A DNA stretch of 64,000 nucleotides. Origin: Pseudomonas sp. MUP55 (GTDB lineage Bacteria > Pseudomonadota > Gammaproteobacteria > Pseudomonadales > Pseudomonadaceae). Made by a program: the position numbers and the translations under genes. The stretch is taken from the NCBI RefSeq assembly GCF_034043515.1, contig NZ_CP138214.1, positions 2,480,001 to 2,544,000 on the forward strand, read 5' to 3'. This document shows positions 17,402-35,265 of the stretch, one piece after another (position 1 is the first letter of the stretch; each line of letters begins with the position of its first letter). A model generated the notes under the pieces. The model had not been told where the DNA came from and ran no database searches. It saw only the letters and a list, made by a program, of their open reading frames with translations.

Positions 17402-17507
17402 TGCGGGTGATTCCTGGCGATTGATCAGAGGCCAACCATACTGCGATTGAACCCTTTTGTCCGGTCAATGCCACACTGTTAATCCGCGAACTGATCAGGA
17501 GGTTGTC

Positions 17508-18329
17508 ATGCGTACTATCGATCTGGCCGGCGTTCCCGTGCCTGTCATCGGCCAGGGAACCTGGCGCATGGGCGAAGACCCGAACCAGCGCCGCGCCGAA
17601 GTGGGCGCATTGCAACTGGGTATCGACGAGGGCCTGACCCTGATCGACACTGCCGAAATGTATGGCGAGGGCGGTGCAGAGGAGGTGGTCGGTGAAGCCA
17701 TCAAGGGCAGGCGCGACCGGGTGTTCCTGGTGAGCAAGGTCTACCCCCACAATGCCAGCAGCCAGGGCGTGCCCCGCGCCTGCGAAGCGAGCCTTCAGCG
17801 CCTGGGCACCGACTACATTGATCTGTACCTGTTGCACTGGCGCGGTCACTACCCCCTTGCCGAAACCGTCGAAGCGTTTGAGCGGCTGCGCGAAGCGGGC
17901 AAGATCGGCCGTTGGGGCGTCTCCAACTTTGATGTGGCAGACCTGCAGGAGCTGGCGTCCCCTGCCTGTGCGACTAACCAGGTGCTCTACAACATTGAAG
18001 AGCGGGGTATCGAATTCGACCTGCTGCCATGGTGGCAACAGCACCATTTGCCATTGATGGCGTACTGTCCCATTGCCCAGGGCGGTGAGCTGCTGGCGAG
18101 CCCGACCCTCAAGCAGATTGCCCATCGTCATGAGGCCACCCCCGCGCAGGTCGCACTCGCCTGGGTTCTGCGACAACAAGGCGTGATCGCCATACCCAAG
18201 GCAGTATCGCCTGAGCACATTCGACAAAATGCCGCTGCCGCGAAGCTGGTACTGGATGAGCATGACCTGGACGCGATCGACCGCGTATTTGGCGCGCCCA
18301 AACGCAAACACCCGCTGGCGATGGTGTAG
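17508..18329 (+). CDS. Aldo/keto reductase
   Basis: A 273-residue NADPH-dependent reductase with the (beta/alpha)8 fold. The catalytic tetrad is visible: Asp and Tyr in LIDTAEMYGEGG (about 46-53), Lys in VFLVSKVYP (about 78), and His in LYLLHWRGHYP (about 109). The C-terminal cofactor region has VIAIPKAVSPEHIRQN. Start chosen at 17508 because an AGGAGG RBS sits 5 bp upstream. Substrate unknown; family members reduce methylglyoxal, 2,5-diketogluconate and similar carbonyls. It converges with hcp. Confidence 0.92.
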   Translation: MRTIDLAGVPVPVIGQGTWRMGEDPNQRRAEVGALQLGIDEGLTLIDTAEMYGEGGAEEVVGEAIKGRRDRVFLVSKVYPHNASSQGVPRACEASLQRLGTDYIDLYLLHWRGHYPLAETVEAFERLREAGKIGRWGVSNFDVADLQELASPACATNQVLYNIEERGIEFDLLPWWQQHHLPLMAYCPIAQGGELLASPTLKQIAHRHEATPAQVALAWVLRQQGVIAIPKAVSPEHIRQNAAAAKLVLDEHDLDAIDRVFGAPKRKHPLAMV

Positions 18330-18378: not shown

Positions 18379-18894
18379 TTAACCGGCTACCGGGCTGCGC
18401 CAGTCGTCCGAGCCGGAAGTGCCGGCCACTTCATGCGTCCAGACGATCTTGCGATAGGTGAAATGCACGTCCTCCAGATGGGTGAAATGGGCATTGCCCG
18501 GGTCCTGACAGTTGGGCATGCGCGACTGAATGTCCACGATCGTTGCGCCTTCCAGTTCAATGGTGAAGTAGTGCTCCTGGGTGCCTGCCGAAGAGGTACG
18601 GAACCATTCCAGCCGGCATGACACCTCTTCCCCCGAGGTCAGCGCGCTGAAAAGCAGCGGCGAGGACTTGTCGAAGACCTTGCTGATCATCAGCGGTTTA
18701 TGCACGCGCTGGCCGGTAGGCTGACCCGATTGCGGATCGCGGGGAATGATCACCTGGTGCGCAAACGCCTGCACCAGGATCTGGTCCTCATGGCCTTCCT
18801 GATAAATGTTTCCTACCGAGTCCTGGGTAAATGTACCTGCGGTGATCAAGCCTTGTTTGACACCGGTGATGGAGAGGTACGCGGGTGTTGGCAT
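18379..18894 (-). CDS. hcp: Hcp, type VI secretion tube protein
   Basis: A 171-residue Hcp of the H2-T6SS (HcpA/HcpB) kind; hexamers stack to form the T6SS inner tube and are secreted. The sequence begins MPTPAYLSITGVKQGLITAGTF, followed by SVGNIYQEGHEDQILVQAF, IPRDPQSGQPTGQRVHKPL and KVFDKSSPLLFSALTSGE, all hallmarks of this group. A longer frame exists to 19026, but ATG 18894 gives the family start. It is transcribed divergently from the tss cluster. A sigma-54-like promoter lies about 70 bp upstream (18965..18980). It appears intact even though the adjoining tss cluster is deleted internally. Confidence 0.95.
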   Translation of the reverse strand: MPTPAYLSITGVKQGLITAGTFTQDSVGNIYQEGHEDQILVQAFAHQVIIPRDPQSGQPTGQRVHKPLMISKVFDKSSPLLFSALTSGEEVSCRLEWFRTSSAGTQEHYFTIELEGATIVDIQSRMPNCQDPGNAHFTHLEDVHFTYRKIVWTHEVAGTSGSDDWRSPVAG

Positions 18895-21475: not shown

Positions 21476-22957
21476 ATGACAGCTACCCAGTACAACCCGC
21501 AGTCCCGGTCAAAAGTCAACGACGAGGGCAGCATTCTCGACAACATCATTGCCCAGACCTTACTGAATGCCGATGACGAGGCGTACAGCATCGCCAAGCG
21601 GGGGGTGTCGGCGTTTATCGAAGAGCTGGTCAAGCCTCACAACCGTGAAGAGCCCGTCAAGAAACGTCTGGTCGACCGGATGATCGCCGAGATCGATGCC
21701 AAGCTCAGCCAGCAGATGGACGAGATTCTGCACCACCCGGACTTCCAGGCATTGGAGTCGGCCTGGCGAGGGCTGCAACTGCTGATCGAGCGCACCGATT
21801 TTCGCGAGAACATCAAGATAGAGCTCCTGAATGTTTCAAGGCAGGACCTGCTGGACGACTTCGAGGATTCCCCGGAGGTCACCCAGTCGGGGCTTTACAA
21901 GCATATCTACAGTGCCGAATACGGCCAGTTTGGCGGCCAGCCGGTCGGGGCGATCATCGCCAACTACTTCCTGTCACCCAGCGCGCCTGATGTGAAACTC
22001 ATGCAGTACGTGTCCAGTGTTGCCGGCATGGCTCATGCGCCGTTCATCGCTGCCGCCGGGCCAGGTTTCTTTGGCCTGGAAAGCTTCACCGGTCTACCTG
22101 ACCTCAAGGACCTCAGGGATCATTTCGAAGGACCGCAGTTTGCCAAATGGCAGAGCTTTCGCCAGAGCGAAGACGCCCGCTACATCGGCCTCACGGTGCC
22201 GCGTTTTCTGCTGCGCACGCCCTACGATCCTCTTGAGTGCCCGGTTAAAACCTTTGCCTACCAGGAAAATGTGGTCAACAGCCACGAGCACTACCTGTGG
22301 GGCAATACGGCCTACGCCTTCGCCACTCGCCTGACGGACAGTTTCGCGCGCTTTCGCTGGTGCCCGAACATCATTGGCCCCCAGAGTGGCGGGGCGGTCG
22401 AGGACCTACCGTTGCATCATTTCCAGAGCATGGGTGAAATTGAAACCAAGATTCCGACCGAGGTGCTGGTGTCGGATCGGCGCGAATACGAGCTGGCACA
22501 GGAAGGGTTCATCGCCCTGACCATGCGCAAGGGCAGTGACAATGCAGCTTTCTTTTCCGCCAGCTCCGTGCAGAAGCCCAAGACGTTCGGCATCAGCGAA
22601 GAGGGCAGGGCCGCAGAGCTGAACTACCGGCTCGGCACCCAGTTGCCGTACATGATGGTGGTCAACCGGCTGGCTCACTACCTCAAGGTTCTACAGCGTG
22701 AACAGCTGGGCTCGTGGAAGGAGCGGACCGACCTGGAGTTGGAACTCAACAAATGGATTCGCCAATACGTGGCGGATCAGGAAAACCCCAGTGCAGAAGT
22801 CCGCGGTCGCCGCCCGCTGCGTGCGGCGCGCATTGTCGTCAGTGACGTCGAAGGTGAGCCGGGCTGGTACCGCGTCAGTTTGAGTGTGCGGCCGCATTTC
22901 AAGTACATGGGGGCGGACTTCACCCTGTCCCTCGTTGGCAAGCTCGACAAAGAATGA
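21476..22957 (+). CDS. tssC: TssC (VipB), T6SS contractile sheath large subunit
   Basis: A 493-residue sheath subunit with the expected motifs: DEILHHPDFQALESAWRGLQ (about 82-101), FGGQPVGAIIANY (about 158-170), VPRFLLRTPYDP, the YLWGNTAYAFATRL segment and the C-terminal IVVSDVEGEPGWYRVSLSVRPHFKYMGADFTLSL. Length and start are typical of the family. Its TGA overlaps the ATG of the tssE remnant (ATGA), preserving the ancestral coupling. Confidence 0.97.
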   Translation: MTATQYNPQSRSKVNDEGSILDNIIAQTLLNADDEAYSIAKRGVSAFIEELVKPHNREEPVKKRLVDRMIAEIDAKLSQQMDEILHHPDFQALESAWRGLQLLIERTDFRENIKIELLNVSRQDLLDDFEDSPEVTQSGLYKHIYSAEYGQFGGQPVGAIIANYFLSPSAPDVKLMQYVSSVAGMAHAPFIAAAGPGFFGLESFTGLPDLKDLRDHFEGPQFAKWQSFRQSEDARYIGLTVPRFLLRTPYDPLECPVKTFAYQENVVNSHEHYLWGNTAYAFATRLTDSFARFRWCPNIIGPQSGGAVEDLPLHHFQSMGEIETKIPTEVLVSDRREYELAQEGFIALTMRKGSDNAAFFSASSVQKPKTFGISEEGRAAELNYRLGTQLPYMMVVNRLAHYLKVLQREQLGSWKERTDLELELNKWIRQYVADQENPSAEVRGRRPLRAARIVVSDVEGEPGWYRVSLSVRPHFKYMGADFTLSLVGKLDKE

Positions 22958-23100
22958 GCCGTGGCCAGGGGATGCGCCACCCCAGCAGCCTTTTCGAGCG
23001 CCTTGAGTCCTATACGTCCCCCGGCGCGTGCCGCTTGACGTCTGTCGCCGCGCATTTGACGAAAATGCTCAGCACCCGTGCAGGCAGCGTGCAAACGCTT
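22954..23100 (+). pseudogene. tssE: TssE remnant (T6SS gp25-like baseplate protein), 3' part deleted
   Basis: Only the first 48-49 codons resemble TssE: SSLFERLESYTSPGA near the N-terminus and the conserved AHLTKMLSTRAGSVQTL. In intact TssE this is followed by a YGLPD-type motif and about 85 more residues. Here, after SVQTL, the frame runs about 40 codons through out-of-frame clpV sequence and stops at 23223. The start keeps its ATGA overlap with tssC, showing the operon was normal up to this point. The baseplate gp25 core, including the family's ExxR-type motif, is absent. The exact breakpoint lies at about 23095-23103. Confidence 0.87.
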
Positions 23101-25088
23101 CTGAGCATCAGCCGATGGCCACAGAGTCGCTGTTGCAGCGCTTTACCCAGGACCTCACCCATCAGGCCCGCGAGGGCCGGATCGACCCGGTGCTGTGCCG
23201 TGAGCGCGAGGTGCGCCAGCTGATCGATATTCTGGTGCGCCGGCGCAAGAACAATCCGATTCTGGTGGGGGAGGCTGGGGTAGGGAAGACCGCGATCGTG
23301 GAAGGGCTGGCTTTGCAGATCGTCGCGTTGCAGGTGCCCGAGGTCCTCAAGGCTGTTCGCGTGCTGACCCTCGATATGGGCTTGCTGCAAGCGGGCGCCG
23401 GCCTCAAGGGTGAATTCGAGCGGCGTCTCAAGGGGGTGATCGATGAAGCGAGCGCCTCGCCCGAGCCGGTAATCCTGTTTATCGACGAAGCCCATACCTT
23501 GGTGGGTGCCGGTGGCCAGCCGGGTGGGCTGGACGCGGCCAACCTGCTCAAGCCGGCGTTGGCGCGCGGCGCGCTGCGTACGATCGCCGCGACGACCTGG
23601 TCGGAATACAAGCAGTACATCGAAAAGGACCCGGCCTTGGCGCGGCGGTTCCAGCCGGTAAAGGTCGGCGAGCCCGGTGTCGAGCAGGCTGTGTCGATTC
23701 TGCGGGGGCTGGTGCCTGCCTACGAAGCGAGTCATGGCGTGTATGTCCGCGATGATGCGGTGGTGGCGGCGGCGCACATGAGCGCCCGCTATCTGGTGGG
23801 CCGACAGCTGCCGGACAAGGCGGTGGACGTGCTGGACACTGCGTGTGCCAGTGCTCGCACGCGTCAGGCAATGCCGCCCGAGGCATTGCAGGCGCTGCGC
23901 ATCCAACTGATCGAGGGGCAACGGCAGGCGCGGGCGCTGACTCGAGATGCCGAGATCGGGTTGCCGGTGGATGCGCAGGCCTTGCAGGCGTTGAAGCTGC
24001 GCCTGGAAACCCTCGAGTCCGAGCGCCAGGTGCTTGAGCAGCATTGGCTTGAGCACAGCGGGCAACCGTTGCTCAAACCTGAGGTATGCCCGCGTGGCGT
24101 AGCTCAGGTCATCAGCGCCTGGACCGGCATTCCTGCCGAGCAGTTGGCCCTTGAACCGAATGAAAAGGTGCTGGGGTTTGCCGAGGCCTTGCGCGCCCGC
24201 GTGCTTGGGCAGGAACATGCGGTACAGGCCCTGGATCGCGCCTTGCGTGCGGTCGCCGCCGGGCTGAACAAGGTCGATGCACCGGTCGGGGTGTTTCTGC
24301 TGGTGGGGCCAAGCGGTGTCGGCAAGACAGAAACGGCGCTGGCCCTGGCGGATCTCCTGTACGGCGGGGAACGCTTTGTCACCACGATCAATATGTCCGA
24401 ATACCAGGAGAAGCACGCGCTCTCTCGATTGATCGGTGCGCCACCGGGCTATGTCGGTTACGGCGAGGGCGGGGTGCTGACCGAAGCCGTGCGCCAGCGT
24501 CCCTATTCGGTTGTGCTGCTCGACGAGGTGGAGAAAGCCGACCCTGAAGTGTTGAACCTGTTTTACCAGGTCTTTGACAAAGGTCGCGCCAATGATGGCG
24601 AAGGGCGGGAAATCGACTTTCGCAACACCGTACTGCTAATGACCTCCAACCTCGCAAGCGACTGTATCAACGCGCTTTGCGCAGGCGGTCAACGACCTGA
24701 ACCCCAAGTACTGCAAGACGCAATTTATCCGGTGCTGCGTGCGCACTTCAAGCCCGCATTGCTCGCCCGTATGCGCGTCGTACCGTATTACCCGATCGCA
24801 GAGAAGGTGCTGCGCGACGTGGCAGAACTCAAGCTTGCGAACCTGGGGCAACGTTTGCAATCACGCAATCTGGGATTCACCTATACGCCAGAACTGGTTG
24901 CACACATAACCGAGCGTTGTGCTGACGGCGACAGCGGTGCGCGGTACATCGACCAATGGCTTGAGCGACATTTAGTGCCGCAGATGGTGGATGGTCTGCT
25001 GGGCGCCATGGCCGTGGATGCACCCGTCAACCTGGTGCATGCCCGACTGGATGGCAATCGTCTGCCTGTCTGCGAGTTCAGCCAATGA
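23101..25088 (+). pseudogene. tssH: ClpV (TssH) remnant lacking the N-terminal domain
   Basis: Encodes the two AAA+ rings of ClpV, the ATPase that recycles contracted sheath, but not its N-terminal sheath-binding domain. Homology begins at LLQRFTQDLTHQAREGRIDPV, which in complete ClpV is about residue 180. Seen: Walker A1 GEAGVGKT, Walker B1 VILFIDEAHT, a middle-domain coiled coil, Walker A2 GPSGVGKTE, Walker B2 VVLLDEVEKA and a ClpB-type C-terminus. Usual ClpV length is about 870-900 aa; only about 657 remain from the first in-frame ATG (23115), which has no convincing RBS. Upstream it is fused out of frame to tssE. The AAA+ frame itself is uninterrupted, so the loss may be recent, or the fragment may still be made. 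Confidence 0.85.
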
Positions 25089-26617
25089 GCGAAAACAACC
25101 TGGACCAACTGCCTGACCCGCTTGCCCATGCCAGCGCCCTGATCGGCTGTATCACACGGATAGGCCTGGACAGTGACGACGCTTCCTTGCCCGGTGCGTG
25201 TGTCGCGGCAGCGGCACACCTGAGCCACTGTGAACTCTGCCAGCTGTACCGACTGGATGATGCGACTGGGCGGCTTGATCTGATCGCCCAGCACCCGAGC
25301 GCGACGCTCCCGCTGGCGGATACCCCTTCAGGAGTCGATCTGCGACACGTGCGTTTGCTGCGTGACACCGTGGACCAGCGCGTTGCCGTCAGTATGGATG
25401 ATGTATGGAACAGCACCTGTGACACGGCTTTTCTGCCGGCGCTCGGGTCACCTTGGCGCGCCCTCTTGAGTGTGCCGTTGTTCGATCGTTTCAATACCGT
25501 GACTGGCGTGCTGCTATGCGCCGCCCAGCGCCCGGCAGCGTTGCAGGCTTACGCATTCTCCCTGGGCCAGTTGGGCAGCTTCGCCTTGCACCAATTGGCA
25601 CTGTTGCGCAGCCTGCGGTGTATGCCGGTTGTTGTACCGCAGGATCGCGCAGTCCCGCTGGCCGGCATGTATGGCCTGATTGGCAGCAGCACAGCGATGG
25701 CGCACACCTGCCAATTGATCAGCAAGGTGCTGCATACCCCTTATACCGTCCTGCTGCGCGGCGAAACCGGCACCGGCAAGGAAGTGGTGGCACGGGCCAT
25801 CCACCAGGCAGGGCCGCGTGCGGACAAGGCGTTTGTGGTGCAAAACTGCGCTGCGTTCCCGGAAGGCTTGTTGGAGAGCGAGCTGTTCGGCTACCGAAAA
25901 GGCGCCTTTACCGGTGCCGAGCGCAACTATGCCGGGCTGTTCGACGCTGCGCACGGGGGCACGCTGCTGCTCGATGAAATAGGCGATATGCCGCTGCCCC
26001 TGCAAGCCAAGTTGTTGCGGGTCCTGCAGGAAGGAGAGGTTCGCCCATTGGGCGCCAGTGCTGCGCACAAGGTCGATGTACGCATCATCGCAGCGACGCA
26101 CCGTGACCTGGCCGCCATGGTCGCCCAAGGCAGCTTCCGTGAAGACCTGTATTACCGGCTTGCCCAGTTCCCCATCCAGCTGCCGGCCTTGCGTGAGCGA
26201 GAAGGGGATGTGCTGCAACTGGCACGGCATTTCGCCGACAAGGCGTGCGCAAACCTGGGGAGGACGCCGGTGCAATGGTCGAATATCGCCCTTGATCAGC
26301 TGTCCAGTCACCCATTTCCCGGCAACGTGCGCGAACTCAAGTGCCTGGTGGAGCGCGCCGTGCTGCTGTGCGACGACAACCTGATTCTGCCGGCGCACCT
26401 GTCGCTGCCTCTGGCGCCGGTTGCAACCGCCGTGGATGACGTAACGCTGCGCCAGCGCATGGAGCGGGTAGAGCGCGTGTTCCTGCTCGACTGCCTGCAG
26501 AAGAATCGCGGCAACCGAACCCGTACGGCGCGTGAGCTGGGCGTCGCACGGCGCACGCTGCTGTATCGGCTCGCCCGCTTGAACATTCCCTGCGGTGATG
26601 CCAGTGCGGAGCGTTGA
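25085..26617 (+). CDS. Sigma-54-dependent T6SS regulator (Sfa/VasH type)
   Basis: A 510-residue enhancer-binding protein: N-terminal GAF-like domain (about 20-165), AAA+ domain with Walker A GETGTGKE at 226-233, GAFTGA at 273-278 and [12 protein letters not shown], and a C-terminal Fis HTH ([23 protein letters not shown]). It has no receiver. VasH/Sfa proteins activate hcp and tss promoters with RpoN. Its ATG overlaps the clpV stop (ATGA), matching the clpV2-sfa2 order of P. aeruginosa H2-T6SS. Candidate target promoters: 18965..18980 and 19324..19339. Confidence 0.93.
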
Positions 26618-26695: not shown

Positions 26696-26827
26696 ATGCC
26701 TGACCGTCCATGGCGCGTCGTCGTGCTTGTGTTGTGTTTGCTCGGCGGTTGTCACGCCAACTATGTATTCGATGATGCCCGGTACCGTCCGCTGGGTGAG
26801 CCGCAGGCGGTGACCCGTGGTCGATGA
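26696..26827 (+). CDS. Small lipoprotein (OrfX position of H2-T6SS)
   Basis: A 43-residue product with Arg near the N-terminus, a hydrophobic stretch and the lipobox LLGGC (Cys about 19), leaving a mature peptide of about 25 residues. It lies between sfa and fha, exactly where the H2-T6SS locus of P. aeruginosa has the short orfX2. A TTGGAG-like RBS precedes the ATG. Function unknown. Its stop overlaps an ATG (26824) that could extend fha by seven codons. Confidence 0.6.
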   Translation: MPDRPWRVVVLVLCLLGGCHANYVFDDARYRPLGEPQAVTRGR

Positions 26828-26844
26828 AAAGAGGGAGCCTGACC

Positions 26845-27639
26845 ATGCAGCTTGTATTTGAAGTATGTGAGACCGCAGGCGGTAACCCTGTGTCCATGGT
26901 GCGCAAAATCTTTGACGGAGCGGGCGGCGTGATCGGCCGTGGCTCTGGCTGCGACTGGGTAATCCACGACCCCAGCCGTTTGCTCTCCAGTCACCACGGT
27001 TTGGTGGGTTACCGGGAAGGTCGGTACTTCCTCACGGATATCAGCAGTAACGGTATCCGTATGGCCAGCACTCGCGAACGCCTGCGCAAAGGGCAGGCGC
27101 ACTTGATCGAGGAGGGTGACGTGTTCGAACTCGGAGCGCTGTCGATACGCGCGCGGTTGATAGAGCCGATCCAGCCTTATTCTGAGCAGCCGATCATCAC
27201 GGGCGTACCGATTCCCGATGATGCGTTCCTGGCGCTGGACCCGTTGCAGGCACTGGACCTCGAACAGCAGCGGCATAACGCATCGGATGAGCTGGGGGCG
27301 TTGAGTGCCGGCATTGCAATGGGCGAGTCCGAAACCTGGGCCGACCGGCATGCCGCCGACCGCGAACACGTGGCGATGCCGCGCCGGGTTGAGTCTCTCA
27401 AGGAGCCTCCCAAGGCTGATCCCGCCGCCATGGCGCCGCCATCCGACGACGTCTTCTGGATGGAGTTTGCCGCAGCGCTGGGGCTTGACCTGGGCAGGCT
27501 TGACCACGTTGCCCGAAAGACGCTGGCGATCAAGGTGGCAGGCCTGTTTCGGCTGGAGGTTGAACGGTTGCAGCACAGCCGCGCCTACGAAGAACAGGTA
27601 CGCCTGATCTCGACCCTGCACAGCGATTATCCAGGATGA
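26845..27639 (+). CDS. fha: FHA-domain T6SS protein (TagH/Fha type), short form
   Basis: A 264-residue protein with an N-terminal forkhead-associated phosphothreonine-binding domain (IGRGSGCDWVIHD, SSHHGLVGYREGRYFLTDISSNG, about 30-100). It probably reads Stk phosphorylation and links it to the TssM/L complex. Start chosen at 26845 because a GAGGGAG RBS is 8 bp upstream; ATG 26824 overlapping orfX is the alternative. T6SS Fha proteins often run to about 400 residues with a conserved C-terminal helical domain. Here only an abbreviated version (FWMEFAAALGLDLGRLDHVARKTL...) is present and the protein ends early. Confidence 0.85.
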   Translation: MQLVFEVCETAGGNPVSMVRKIFDGAGGVIGRGSGCDWVIHDPSRLLSSHHGLVGYREGRYFLTDISSNGIRMASTRERLRKGQAHLIEEGDVFELGALSIRARLIEPIQPYSEQPIITGVPIPDDAFLALDPLQALDLEQQRHNASDELGALSAGIAMGESETWADRHAADREHVAMPRRVESLKEPPKADPAAMAPPSDDVFWMEFAAALGLDLGRLDHVARKTLAIKVAGLFRLEVERLQHSRAYEEQVRLISTLHSDYPG

Positions 27640-27661: not shown

Positions 27662-28129
27662 ATGCCTCTGTTGCTCCTGCTCGGCCTGTTGACTGGTTGC
27701 AGCGCTGTATCACCTTTCTCGACATTGACCAAACTGGACCTGGTACTGACCGCCAGTGACCAGGTCAACCCGGACATTCATGGCCGACCCTCTCCGGTCG
27801 TGCTGCAACTGATCGAACTGCGTCATGGCGTGGCCTTCGAGAATGCCGATTTTTTCAGCATGTACGAGCACGCCGAGCAGGTATTGCCAAAGGACTGGGT
27901 GAGCAGCGAGGAAATCGAACTGCGCCCGGGCGATCGGCGGGCGCTCAAGCTCAGTGTCGGGCCAAAGAGTCATTTTGTGGGGGTGCTGGCGGCGTATCGC
28001 GACTTGCCCCACGTTCAATGGCGCCTGCTCGTTCCGCTCGCCGCTCAACAAGTGAACCGTGTAGAGCTGGTGCTGGAACGAGATGGTATCCGACTGGCCG
28101 ACGCGCATTCCGACAAAGAGGTGCAGTGA
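27662..28129 (+). CDS. tssJ: TssJ outer-membrane lipoprotein, possible 5' frameshift
   Basis: A 155-residue T6SS lipoprotein that anchors the TssL-TssM complex to the outer membrane. Lipobox LLTGC (Cys about 12) is followed by the transthyretin-like TssJ fold (LVLTASDQVNPDIHGRPSPVVLQLIELRHG, FFSMYEHAEQVLPKDW). ATG 27662 gives MPLLLLLGLLTGC, with no positive residue before the hydrophobic core and no RBS. An ATG at 27645 with a CAGGA RBS encodes MYRSPL in another frame; one base change in between would give a normal signal peptide. So the native start may have been lost by frameshift. Confidence 0.88.
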   Translation: MPLLLLLGLLTGCSAVSPFSTLTKLDLVLTASDQVNPDIHGRPSPVVLQLIELRHGVAFENADFFSMYEHAEQVLPKDWVSSEEIELRPGDRRALKLSVGPKSHFVGVLAAYRDLPHVQWRLLVPLAAQQVNRVELVLERDGIRLADAHSDKEVQ

Positions 28130-28130
28130 T

Positions 28131-29459
28131 ATGCACACCCATAAGGTCATTTGGCAGGAAGGCATGCTGCTGCGGCCACAGCACTTGCAGCACAACGACC
28201 GTCATTACCGGCAGCAGCTTAACCAGACGCGTTTGCTGAGCCCGGACGCCTGGGGGTTCCTCACGCTGGAACTCGATGTGCAGTACCTCAACCTCGGCAA
28301 ATTGGTGGTCACTCAAGCCAGCGGAGTGTTGCCGGACGGCAGCCTGTTCGAACACGGCGCCGCCATGGAACCGCTGGTGTTGCAGGTGCCGGCCAACTCG
28401 GGGGAACAGGCTGTTTACCTGGGACTGCTGCTGGCGACAGGCAATCAGACCGAAACCCGCCAACCGGATCAGCACGATGTGCTGGCGCGTTACCTTACCT
28501 GTGAGGTGGAGATCGCAGATTCCAACGCCGGGGCCGACTCTCGTTGCCTGATTCACTGCGCAAGGCCTGACCTGCGCCTGCTGTTGGGTGAGCAGCACAG
28601 AGAGCAGGGCTTTGTCAGGCTCAAGGTTGCCCAGGTGCTGGAATCTACCGAGGCGGGGGGTGTGCGCCTGGATGCGGGATTCGTCCCGACGTTCATTTTC
28701 ATGCAGGACCGCGGGTATGTAGCGTCTTGCCTGAAGGAGGTGATCGGCTTGCTTGCATCGCGAGGCGATGCCATCGCGGCGCGCATCCGCGGCGAGAGCA
28801 CCGCCGCCGGCACGCAGGTTGGCGATTTTCTGATGCTGCAAGTGATCAACCGTAGCGAGCTGGAGCTGCGCCACTGCTTGAGCCAGGCTCAGGTTCGTCC
28901 TGAAGCCGTATTTCGTGCCCTGTTGGCGCTGCTCGGCGAATTGTCGACCTTCGCCAGCGACAGCAAGCGCGCAGTGCTGGATGTGCATTACCGGCACGCC
29001 GACCAGGGAGCAAGTTTTCGTGGGCTGATGGAAGCTGTTCGCGGCGTACTGTCGGTCGTGCTGGAACAACACGCTATCGAATTGGCGCTGCAACCCCGTC
29101 AGTACGGCGTGTTGGTATGTCCGGTAAGCGATCTGAAATTGCTGGGTACCGCAACGTTCATCCTGGCGGCCACGGCGCAATCCGATTCGCAAGAGTTACG
29201 CCAACGCCTGCCAGCGCATCTGAAAGTCGGCCCCGTTGAGCGCATACGCGAGCTGGTCAATCTGCACCTGGCGGGTATCAAGGTCAAACCACTGCCCGTG
29301 GCGCCGCGCCAGATCCCGTTTCACGCCGCCAAGACCTACTTCATGCTTGATATGACTGCTCGCGACATCGCGCAGTTGGAGCAATCGGGTGGGTTCGCCT
29401 TTCATGTGGGGGGCGAATTTTCAGGGCTTGAGCTTACCTTCTGGGCCATCAGGAATTGA
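28131..29459 (+). CDS. tssK: TssK, T6SS baseplate-membrane connector
   Basis: A 442-residue protein with the hallmark N-terminus MHTHKVIWQEGMLLRPQHLQ and the GxFPDGxxF-like stretch GVLPDGSLFEHGAAMEPL. TssK trimers link the TssF/TssG wedge to TssL/TssM. ATG 28131, 1 bp after the tssJ stop, is chosen over an in-frame upstream ATG inside tssJ because it gives the family start. Its direct partners TssF and TssG are missing from this locus. Confidence 0.96.
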   Translation: MHTHKVIWQEGMLLRPQHLQHNDRHYRQQLNQTRLLSPDAWGFLTLELDVQYLNLGKLVVTQASGVLPDGSLFEHGAAMEPLVLQVPANSGEQAVYLGLLLATGNQTETRQPDQHDVLARYLTCEVEIADSNAGADSRCLIHCARPDLRLLLGEQHREQGFVRLKVAQVLESTEAGGVRLDAGFVPTFIFMQDRGYVASCLKEVIGLLASRGDAIAARIRGESTAAGTQVGDFLMLQVINRSELELRHCLSQAQVRPEAVFRALLALLGELSTFASDSKRAVLDVHYRHADQGASFRGLMEAVRGVLSVVLEQHAIELALQPRQYGVLVCPVSDLKLLGTATFILAATAQSDSQELRQRLPAHLKVGPVERIRELVNLHLAGIKVKPLPVAPRQIPFHAAKTYFMLDMTARDIAQLEQSGGFAFHVGGEFSGLELTFWAIRN

Positions 29460-33698: not shown

Positions 33699-34426
33699 AC
33701 CCGGTGTTCCCCCCATGGCGCAGCGCCGGGCGTACCCAGCGCGGGCAGGCCCGCCCGCGCAACGAGGACGCCTTGCTCGATTGCCCGCAACGAGGTTGCT
33801 GGGCCGTGGCGGACGGCATGGGTGGCCATCGTCACGGCGATGTCGCCAGCCAGTGGGTGGTCGCCAGCCTGGCGTTGTTGCCTGCGCAGGGCAGCCTTGA
33901 TCAGCGAGTCGGTGCGGTCCGGCGCAGCTTGCAAGGTGTGAACCAGCGGCTGGCGGATGCGTGCAGGCGGTCTGGGCCAACCGGCAGTTCCATGATGGGC
34001 AGCACGGTGGTTGCGCTATTGCTGGAGAATGGACGTGCGGCCTGTGTGTGGGCGGGGGACAGCCGCTGTTATTTGTGGCGCGAGCGCAGCCTGTACCAGT
34101 TGTCCAGAGATCATTCGCTGTTGCAGCGCCTGATGGACGAACGTCAGTTGAGTGCCACCCAGGCCCGTGCTCACCCCGAGGCCAGAGCCCTGACCCGCGC
34201 CATTGGCGCGCACTCGCCATTGCGGCTTGAGGTACTGGAGCTCAGTACCCGCCCTGGCGATGTGTTTTTATTGTGCAGCGACGGCCTGTACCAGGCACTC
34301 AGCCCTGTGGAACTGGGCCTGGCGTTGAGTGCAGGCGGACCGCAGCAGGTCGTGGAACGCTTGTTCGCCAGCGCGCTGCACACCCCGGCACGCGATGATC
34401 TGACCGCTGTCGTGGTGCAGCCATGA
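33695..34426 (+). CDS. stp1: PP2C-type Ser/Thr phosphatase (Stp1/PppA) of T6SS
   Basis: A 243-residue PPM/PP2C phosphatase: RPRNEDA at the N-terminus, the metal site VADGMGGH (about 36-43), STVVALLL, WAGDSRCYLWR, the LLCSDGLYQAL Asp, and the C-terminal ARDDLTAVVV motif. It dephosphorylates targets of the following kinase in the threonine-phosphorylation switch of T6SS. Coupled by 4-bp overlaps to tssM upstream and the kinase downstream. Confidence 0.93.
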   Translation: MNPVFPPWRSAGRTQRGQARPRNEDALLDCPQRGCWAVADGMGGHRHGDVASQWVVASLALLPAQGSLDQRVGAVRRSLQGVNQRLADACRRSGPTGSSMMGSTVVALLLENGRAACVWAGDSRCYLWRERSLYQLSRDHSLLQRLMDERQLSATQARAHPEARALTRAIGAHSPLRLEVLELSTRPGDVFLLCSDGLYQALSPVELGLALSAGGPQQVVERLFASALHTPARDDLTAVVVQP

Positions 34427-35265
34427 GCGCGACACCAGCCTTTCCTGTGCTGCTCGCCGGGCGCTACCACCTTGAGCATGTATTGGGCCGTGGTGCGATG
34501 GGCGTGGTGTACCGCGCACGCGACCTGTTACACGAGCAATTTGGCGAGCCTTGCTCCGGTGTGGCGATCAAGGTGTTGGGCGAGTCTTTATCAGCCTGTC
34601 CGGATGCTCACGTCCTGCTGTACAGCGAGTTTGCGTTGGCGCGTCGCCTGCGGCATGAGCACGTGGTGAGGATGTATTCGTTTGAGGTGGATACGGGTAG
34701 CCAGATGGCCTTTTTTACCATGGAGCTGCTGCACGGCCTGACGCTGGACCGGCTGATTCTGGAATGCCCCGAGGGAGTGCCTTGGCGGGAGCTGCAGCCG
34801 ATTGCCGTGCAACTGCTGGATGCGTTGGCGTACGCCCACCGACACAACGTTCTGCATGGCGATATCAAGCCGGCCAACGTGATGCTGGGTGAAGAGGGCG
34901 TGCGCTTGTTTGATTTCGGCTTGGGGCAACTACTGGCGCAGACCACGGCGGACCTGGCCAGTGTGAGTCGCAGCCGAGTGAATGCCTGGACTCGTGCCTA
35001 TGCGGCGCCTGAACTACTGGCAGGTGGCGAGTTGACCCTCGCCACCGACCTTTATGCCGCGGCGTGCGTGCTGTATGAACTGGCTCATGGGGCTCGCCTG
35101 GGTGAATGCCCTCCCGGCCAAGGGCTGACCCGGCCCAGGCAGTTGCCGCGACGCTGCTGGCCGGCATTGCAGGTTGCCTTGGCGCACGACCCGCAACGCC
35201 GGGCCCTGACGGTTGCCGAATTGGGCGAGGTCATTAGTTGCCGGCGGTCTCGCTGGTTAAGCTGA
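34423..35265 (+). CDS. stk1: Ser/Thr protein kinase (Stk1/PpkA) of T6SS
   Basis: A 280-residue Hanks-type kinase domain: Gly loop LGRGAMGVVYRARD (about 19-32), ATP Lys in GVAIKVLG (about 50), catalytic loop HGDIKPANVML (Asp about 147; HGD rather than HRD), DFG as FDFGL, and an APE-like AAPE. There is no transmembrane segment and no periplasmic sensor, unlike PpkA of H1-T6SS; Stk1 of H2-T6SS is likewise cytosolic as I recall. Probable substrate: the Fha protein or TssL. Last gene of the T6SS run, 8 bp from a convergent unrelated gene. Confidence 0.92.
   Translation: MSATPAFPVLLAGRYHLEHVLGRGAMGVVYRARDLLHEQFGEPCSGVAIKVLGESLSACPDAHVLLYSEFALARRLRHEHVVRMYSFEVDTGSQMAFFTMELLHGLTLDRLILECPEGVPWRELQPIAVQLLDALAYAHRHNVLHGDIKPANVMLGEEGVRLFDFGLGQLLAQTTADLASVSRSRVNAWTRAYAAPELLAGGELTLATDLYAAACVLYELAHGARLGECPPGQGLTRPRQLPRRCWPALQVALAHDPQRRALTVAELGEVISCRRSRWLS

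What the first reader, a model, noticed from the sequence alone, without database searches (positions are those of the whole stretch)
22954..25088. T6SS cluster has lost tssE 3' end, tssF, tssG and the 5' end of clpV by one apparent internal deletion
Seen: TssE homology ends abruptly after SVQTL (about codon 48), and within a few bases the next frame continues as ClpV from its AAA1 domain (LLQRFTQDL). No tssF or tssG reading frame exists anywhere in the window. Known: in H2-type loci the order is tssC-tssE-tssF-tssG-clpV-sfa, so the missing segment is contiguous. Usual family sizes put the loss near 3-4 kb (estimate). TssE/F/G form the baseplate wedge and cannot be bypassed. Inference: a decaying or inactivated T6SS, yet tssA/B/C/K/L/M, hcp, sfa and the kinase/phosphatase remain open, implying a recent event or retained side functions. 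An assembly error is also possible.
Basis: partly seen in the sequence, partly recalled or inferred. Interest (0 to 1): 0.72.

Follow-up and report, generated by a model that had tools for sequence, protein, structure and literature searches.

The report
Deletion-broken type VI secretion cluster
One of this Pseudomonas's three molecular-syringe gene clusters has lost a single 3.5-kb piece holding the core of its baseplate and the start of its recycling motor, probably recently, so it almost certainly no longer works; the same cluster has broken in different ways in several related species.

Summary
Against seven relatives with the full stretch, 3,484-3,485 bp are missing at window 23099/23100: tssE codons 50-139, all of tssF and tssG, and about the first 153 codons of clpV. 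The junction has 2 bp of microhomology and no repeat at the breakpoints. The single-contig genome has tssE/F/G elsewhere only as parts of two other T6SS clusters, so this is not a displaced copy. Best reading: a fairly recent inactivating deletion in an H2 (HSI-II)-like T6SS. Retained genes show no clear relaxation (a weak hint in sfa), and a full-length ClpV 98% identical is known. The event is not unusual. Of the 57 best flank-matched relatives, 5 carry multi-gene internal deletions and one keeps only hcp and a stk1 fossil, while a full ClpV of the 5.80-Mb type is present in 18 of 18 genomes checked. A five-species clade lost clpV yet keeps the rest under normal constraint. Incomplete and clpV-less HSI-II loci in this group are already in print (Loper 2012), so this is a new member of a known kind. 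Misassembly is unlikely but not excluded without reads.

The parts
22954..23223 (+). tssE remnant: 49 native codons then 40 out-of-frame codons to a stop
   Evidence: tblastn to G122 TssE residues 1-49 of 139; 89-codon frame; intact TssE carries PF04965 at residues 29-111
23098..23103 (.). deletion junction; 3,484 bp missing relative to W4I3 and PfR37; 'CT' microhomology
23100..25088 (+). clpV remnant from about residue 154 of 815; keeps both AAA modules, lacks the N-terminal (TssC-binding) domain; in-frame start candidates GTG 23028 and ATG 23115
   Evidence: N-domain role from PMC5048182 (passages)
26824..27639 (+). fha (tagH), truncated: about 400 bp lost at about 27583, FHA domain kept, C-terminal T6SS_FHA_C (PF20232) no longer found; lesion shared with W4I3
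18379..18894 (-). hcp, intact, divergent from the cluster
   Evidence: 171-codon frame; 95-99% identical in the 8 loci that hold an orthologous hcp nearly whole, 77% in L191
19358..20926 (+). tssA, intact
   Evidence: TIGR03362
20951..21460 (+). tssB, intact
   Evidence: TIGR03358
21476..22957 (+). tssC, intact
   Evidence: TIGR03355
25085..26617 (+). sfa-like sigma-54 activator, intact
   Evidence: PF00158
27662..28129 (+). tssJ
   Evidence: PF12790; matches residues 20-164 of the 164 of G122
28083..29459 (+). tssK, intact
   Evidence: TIGR03353
29456..30325 (+). tssL, intact
   Evidence: PF09850, TIGR03349
30342..33698 (+). tssM, intact
   Evidence: TIGR03348
33695..34426 (+). stp1 phosphatase, intact
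   Evidence: matches NF033484, below its cut-off
34423..35265 (+). stk1 kinase, open frame
   Evidence: ORF list; orthologues in relatives; not scanned against a family library, the kinase name is recalled

Best explanation
The locus is an H2 (HSI-II)-like type VI secretion cluster broken by one illegitimate-recombination deletion of 3,484 bp, probably recent. It removed most of TssE, all of TssF and TssG (the baseplate wedge) and the N-terminal TssC-binding domain of ClpV. Shown: the deletion, its size and junction, the lack of a second copy of the lost genes, and open, still constrained remaining genes. Inferred: without TssF/TssG no sheath is nucleated, so this cluster no longer fires, and the remaining frames are open because the loss is young. 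Two other T6SS clusters in the genome presumably keep the cell armed. Loss of this cluster is repeatedly tolerated in the P. fluorescens subgroup.
For: One gap against seven relatives with the full stretch. Whole-genome searches show tssE/F/G only in the clusters at 5.80 and 2.21 Mb, 29-41% identical to this family's wedge proteins where they align. tssF and tssG are needed for sheath assembly and Hcp release in EAEC (PMC4604203, passages); the ClpV N-domain binds TssC (PMC5048182, passages). Window tip N/S 0.503 against 0.357 (W4I3), 0.447 (G122) and 0.592 (G168); Fisher p 0.61 against the three pooled. Full-length ClpV 98% identical in the database (P0001). Independent deletions of the same cluster elsewhere.
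Against: No reads were mapped, no other strain of the species was seen, no activity was tested. Against W4I3 alone the window tip has more amino-acid changes (p 0.038), and sfa is raised (N/S 0.75 against 0.33 in the three others pooled, p 0.038; against W4I3 p 0.012), both uncorrected for 12 genes: some relaxation is possible. Constraint on the rest fits a retained side function as well as a recent loss.
Confidence: 0.87

Rival explanations
1. Assembly error: the 3.5 kb is present in the organism but was dropped.
For: Reads were not available; no second genome with the same junction was found (none of the 120 listed proteins has the window frame's length; the window's own protein was not listed either).
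Against: Single-contig genome; breakpoints share only 2 bp, and none of the 20 repeat families shown of 21 in W4I3 pairs them, the nearest being a 15-nt pair 67 and 114 bp away; the lost sequence is not elsewhere in the assembly; similar but distinct deletions occur in other genomes.
Confidence: 0.05
2. Hybrid machine: wedge proteins and ClpV from the other two T6SS clusters serve this locus, so it still works.
For: Other tssE/F/G and an intact ClpV exist; the 2.21 Mb cluster is the closer one (TssC 63%, TssB 50% identical) and has no clpV of its own.
Against: Wedge identity only 38/29% (TssF) and 34/30% (TssG); ClpV1 and ClpV2 are not interchangeable in EAEC (PMC5048182).
Confidence: 0.03
3. 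The remaining genes are kept for side functions (Hcp or sheath parts lent to another T6SS, Stp1/Stk1 signalling), so the deletion may be older than it looks.
For: Most retained genes show no relaxation; in 4 of the 7 other deletion alleles laid out, and in the window, tssA-tssB-tssC, the seen part of hcp, and stk1 remain; in G176, which lost the cluster, hcp is still 95.6% identical over residues 14-171.
Against: Retention of end genes is what an internal deletion leaves; a young deletion explains the constraint with fewer assumptions; sfa may be relaxing.
Confidence: 0.15

Closest known systems
Incomplete or clpV-less HSI-II-like loci of the P. fluorescens group (Loper et al. 2012, PMC3390384)
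   Same: HSI-II-like cluster missing components; SBW25 has an incomplete copy; A506, SS101 and BG33R lack clpV (passages)
   Different: Here the missing set is tssE(part)-tssF-tssG-clpV(part), with the membrane-complex genes kept; the passage does not say what SBW25 lacks
H2-T6SS losses in P. aeruginosa (PMC11751169)
   Same: Repeated losses of clusters; the H2 deletion affects almost exclusively T6SS genes (passage)
   Different: There the cluster is described as missing; here a 3.5-kb internal segment
P. putida K2/K3-T6SS (group 1.2a, PMC12482989)
   Same: Clusters lacking clpV; K2 also has pseudogenes (passages)
   Different: That group is said to have no clpV at all; the window cluster's relatives do have it. 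The 2.21 Mb cluster of this genome resembles that clpV-less kind
Bee-gut T6SS loss (PMC8125069)
   Same: Loss of part of a locus described as a usual route (passage)
   Different: There followed by pseudogenes in the rest; here the rest, fha apart, is still open

Membership tests
H2/HSI-II-like T6SS cluster (as a locus) | gene order tssA-B-C-E-F-G-clpV-sfa-fha-tssJ-K-L-M-stp1-stk1 | tested here: met
   Order as in the full relatives except for the deleted piece; the label H2 rests on order and on PMC3390384, not on a tree with P. aeruginosa
Functional T6SS | sheath, membrane-complex and TssK genes | tested here: met
   tssB, C, J, K, L, M present and open
Functional T6SS | baseplate wedge TssE, TssF, TssG | tested here: not met
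   tssE 49 of 139 codons; tssF and tssG absent from the locus
Functional T6SS | ClpV with TssC-binding N domain | tested here: not met
   clpV begins at about residue 154 of 815; not strictly required in every system (PMC12482989)
Functional T6SS | Hcp secretion or sheath dynamics | not testable with these tools
   needs the strain
Decayed T6SS remnant | essential component deleted relative to an intact orthologous locus | tested here: met
Decayed T6SS remnant | relaxed selection or pseudogenes in the remaining genes | tested here: inconclusive
   only fha is truncated; pooled N/S not raised against three tips (p 0.61), raised against W4I3 alone (p 0.038) and in sfa (p 0.012-0.038, uncorrected)

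The most novel reading that the evidence does not exclude
The H2-like T6SS of the P. fluorescens subgroup is under recurrent loss while the other main system is kept. In one five-species clade it went on working, under full purifying selection, after its own clpV was deleted, by borrowing ClpV1 or running without ClpV. The window strain is a later, fully dead outcome of the same tendency.
Probability: 0.3. Interest if true: 0.5.

Novelty: new member of a known kind. Interest (0 to 1): 0.33.

Why it matters
It documents, at base resolution, a T6SS inactivated between the sheath genes and the motor gene while nearly everything else is still open, so loss can be seen before erosion. With the relatives it gives a natural series (intact, clpV-less but constrained, wedge-less, gutted, fossil) that could test which T6SS parts can be lent between systems in one cell, above all ClpV. 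As a single finding it is an ordinary inactivating deletion.

Tried and rejected
Rejected: a displaced tssEFGH set; a repeat-driven deletion or collapse. Not firm: dating by relaxed selection. The rough bound, at most 6-10% of the window tip spent without constraint, uses three tips as baseline and assumes that all constraint ended at the deletion; with W4I3 alone as baseline my own arithmetic on the same numbers gives about 10-16%. Led nowhere: a plasmid search with the junction (no match); a protein search with the junction frame: the 120 hits listed of 8,000 scored are all 713 residues or longer, so no second carrier was seen, but the window's own protein was not listed either, so absence means little. 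Whether end genes (hcp-tssABC, stp1-stk1) are kept more often than chance was not tested; too few events. Split genes in relatives (L146 tssM, L154 tssK, L193 clpV, L164 tssG, four genes in L187, W4I3 sfa and fha) may be sequencing errors and were not counted as deletions. Literature: 9 searches; papers were read only as passages found by term (PMC4672498 was not used). I found no paper describing this junction, in those searches only.

Full report
WHAT IS THERE. The window is G000:C1:2480001-2544000 of a 5,948,019-bp single-contig Pseudomonas genome. Among the 80 named loci returned by TssC, the closest are Pseudomonas sp. W4I3 (98% aa) and P. fluorescens PfR37 (96%) (records very near the window may be left out there). 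The cluster reads hcp (divergent), tssA, tssB, tssC, tssE remnant, clpV remnant, sfa-like activator, fha, tssJ, tssK, tssL, tssM, stp1, stk1. TssE homology stops after residue 49 of 139; the frame continues for 40 codons to a stop at 23221-23223. ClpV homology starts at about residue 154 of 815.

THE DELETION. Blastn of the window against six relatives (G122, G309, G188, G168, G350, G360) shows two collinear blocks around this place. The left one ends at window 23087-23099 and the right one starts at 23100-23107, depending on divergence. W4I3, 95% and 92% identical on the two sides, gives 23099 and 23098, a 2-bp overlap, CT. The block positions give 3,484 bp missing against five of the six and 3,485 against G350. 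3,484 is not a multiple of three. Of 21 direct-repeat families in the W4I3 stretch (20 shown) none pairs the breakpoints; the nearest is a 15-nt pair with one mismatch, 67 and 114 bp away and spaced 3,531 bp. Two bases of microhomology are expected by chance and say little about mechanism beyond 'not homologous recombination' (inference).

NOTHING REPLACES IT. Pfam TssF and TssG each match twice in the genome, at about 5.80 and 2.21 Mb; gp25/TssE likewise. Apart from the window remnant, one ClpV (5.80 Mb) passes the TIGR03345 cut-off. The 2.21 Mb locus has tssA, B, C, E, F, G, K, L, M, hcp, vgrG and an FHA-TssJ fusion but no clpV. Compared with the intact proteins of G122, the 2.21 Mb and 5.80 Mb TssF are 38% and 29% identical and TssG 34% and 30%; TssE gave 41% over a part at 2.21 Mb, where my fetched pieces cut the gene, and no match at 5.80 Mb. 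These are other systems, not a moved piece.

A SECOND, OLDER LESION. Fha here has 271 residues against 396 in G122. About 400 bp (401 against G122) are missing at about 27583, also with a 2-bp overlap. The FHA domain remains and the C-terminal T6SS_FHA_C domain (PF20232) is no longer found. W4I3 has the same loss, so it predates their split. W4I3, which has the full tssE-clpV stretch, shows frame breaks in sfa (codon 448) and early fha; these could be sequencing errors.

AGE. Pairwise dN/dS of window and W4I3 is 0.03-0.28 for the genes both hold (0.30 for the 49-codon tssE stub), inside the spread of the other pairs shown for most genes; stk1 (0.279) is above them (0.08-0.15, over fewer codons). 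Changes assigned to the window tip give N/S 136.5/271.5 = 0.503, against 0.357 (W4I3), 0.447 (G122) and 0.592 (G168); hcp, tssE, tssF and tssG were left out of these sums. Fisher test against the three pooled: p = 0.61. Against this reading: compared with W4I3 alone p = 0.038, and sfa stands out (0.75 against 0.33, p 0.038; against W4I3 p 0.012), uncorrected for 12 genes. A ClpV of 812 residues, 98% identical over 97% of the query, is known from a 40.7-kb contig (P0001), so a close relative still has the whole gene. The deletion is therefore probably young relative to the branch. Retained side functions would look the same.

HOW COMMON IS THIS. I took an upstream flank gene (aldo/keto reductase, 17457-18329) as an anchor independent of cluster content. 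It matched in 352 of 398 genus genomes, the window genome included. I fetched 20 kb downstream for the 57 best-matching relatives, not for the rest, and classified 14 genes with a fixed rule. Of 57: 37 have all 14 full length; 5 have multi-gene internal deletions (G119, G234, G219, G209, G171); 1 (G176) keeps hcp and a 44-residue stk1 fossil only; 2 lack clpV (G238, and G099 with a split tssG as well); 1 lacks stp1; 4 have one or more split genes, of which G359 has four; 5 have none of the 14 genes (in three of them, G305, G191 and G310, the downstream flank gene lies within about 1.1 kb of the upstream one); 1 has another T6SS; 1 runs out of the 20-kb stretch. Whether the empty sites are losses or never held the cluster I cannot say. 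On a tssA-B-C tree of 53 loci, the window and four other internal-deletion alleles (G119, G234, G219, P. simiae) each sit singly among loci that I had labelled intact (the label includes loci with a split gene). G209, G171 and G176 were not in it. The breakpoints differ, so the events look separate. In contrast a ClpV matching positions 1-851 of 852, of the type at 5.80 Mb in the window genome (my grouping by score, not a tree), is present in 18 of 18 genomes checked, decayed and intact ones alike.

THE CLPV-LESS CLADE. The five clpV-less loci are monophyletic (local support 1.0), and stubs of clpV of different length remain, so one loss followed by erosion is likeliest; separate losses are not excluded. 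Their other genes stay full length, except a split tssG in G099 and the part of P. haemolytica beyond the fetched end. Nearest-neighbour dN/dS within the clade is 0.12-0.13 for tssF+tssG and 0.14-0.16 for tssK+L+M, like 42 intact loci (medians 0.127 and 0.158). The TssC N-terminal region is as conserved as in loci with clpV (80% mean pairwise identity over residues 12-45, against 81% and 78% in two sets of 9 and 7 loci that I chose). So these systems look functional without their own ClpV. Whether ClpV1 serves them is open: EAEC ClpVs are not interchangeable (PMC5048182), while ClpV-free function is reported elsewhere (PMC12482989). In the internal-deletion alleles the same pairwise measure is also normal, but it is diluted by evolution before the deletion.

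WHAT IT MEANS FOR THE WINDOW. [quoted passage not shown] The ClpV remnant lacks the N domain that binds TssC. I conclude that this cluster cannot fire (inference, not assayed), that the loss is probably recent, and that it is one of several independent losses of this cluster in the subgroup.

AGAINST WHAT IS KNOWN. Loper et al. 2012 (passages) already report an incomplete HSI-II-like locus in SBW25 and clpV-less ones in A506, SS101 and BG33R. PMC11751169 reports H2 losses in P. aeruginosa, and PMC8125069 partial loss in bee symbionts. The kind is known; the junction, the fha lesion, the event count and the constraint on the clpV-less clade I did not find in print in the searches listed under Tried and rejected. 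The name H2 rests on gene order and on that paper; I made no tree with P. aeruginosa.

Noticed in passing
window 26824-27639: fha lost about 400 bp including its C-terminal domain, a lesion shared with W4I3 and so older than the tssE-clpV deletion.
   Followed up: yes
L059 and L060 (own genome, about 2.20-2.22 Mb): A further T6SS cluster with no clpV of its own and an FHA-TssJ fusion protein, like the clpV-less group 1.2a kind described for P. putida K2/K3.
   Followed up: partly
L152, L164, L198, L199, L066: Five-species clade whose H2-like cluster lacks clpV; the rest is under normal constraint (tssG split in L164). All five have alanine in TssC at reference position 49 where the 20 other loci printed have E or Q.
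   Followed up: partly
L078 13603-14418 (P. simiae CCUG 50988): In-frame fusion of the TssG N-terminal part to the Stp1 C-terminal part, with everything between deleted.
   Followed up: no
L202 and L166 (G176): The whole cluster is gone except hcp and a 44-residue stk1 fossil between conserved flank genes; hcp is still 95.6% identical.
   Followed up: partly
L186 440-3062 (G171): Beside loss of the tssA-sfa half, tssK alone is missing between tssJ and tssL.
   Followed up: no
L061 17094-19614 (W4I3): Frame breaks in sfa (codon 448) and early fha in the sister strain that has the full tssE-clpV stretch; could be sequencing errors.
   Followed up: no
window 25085-26617: sfa has more amino-acid changes on the window tip than in three relatives (N/S 0.75 against 0.33, p 0.038, uncorrected); could be early relaxation of the regulator.
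   Followed up: partly
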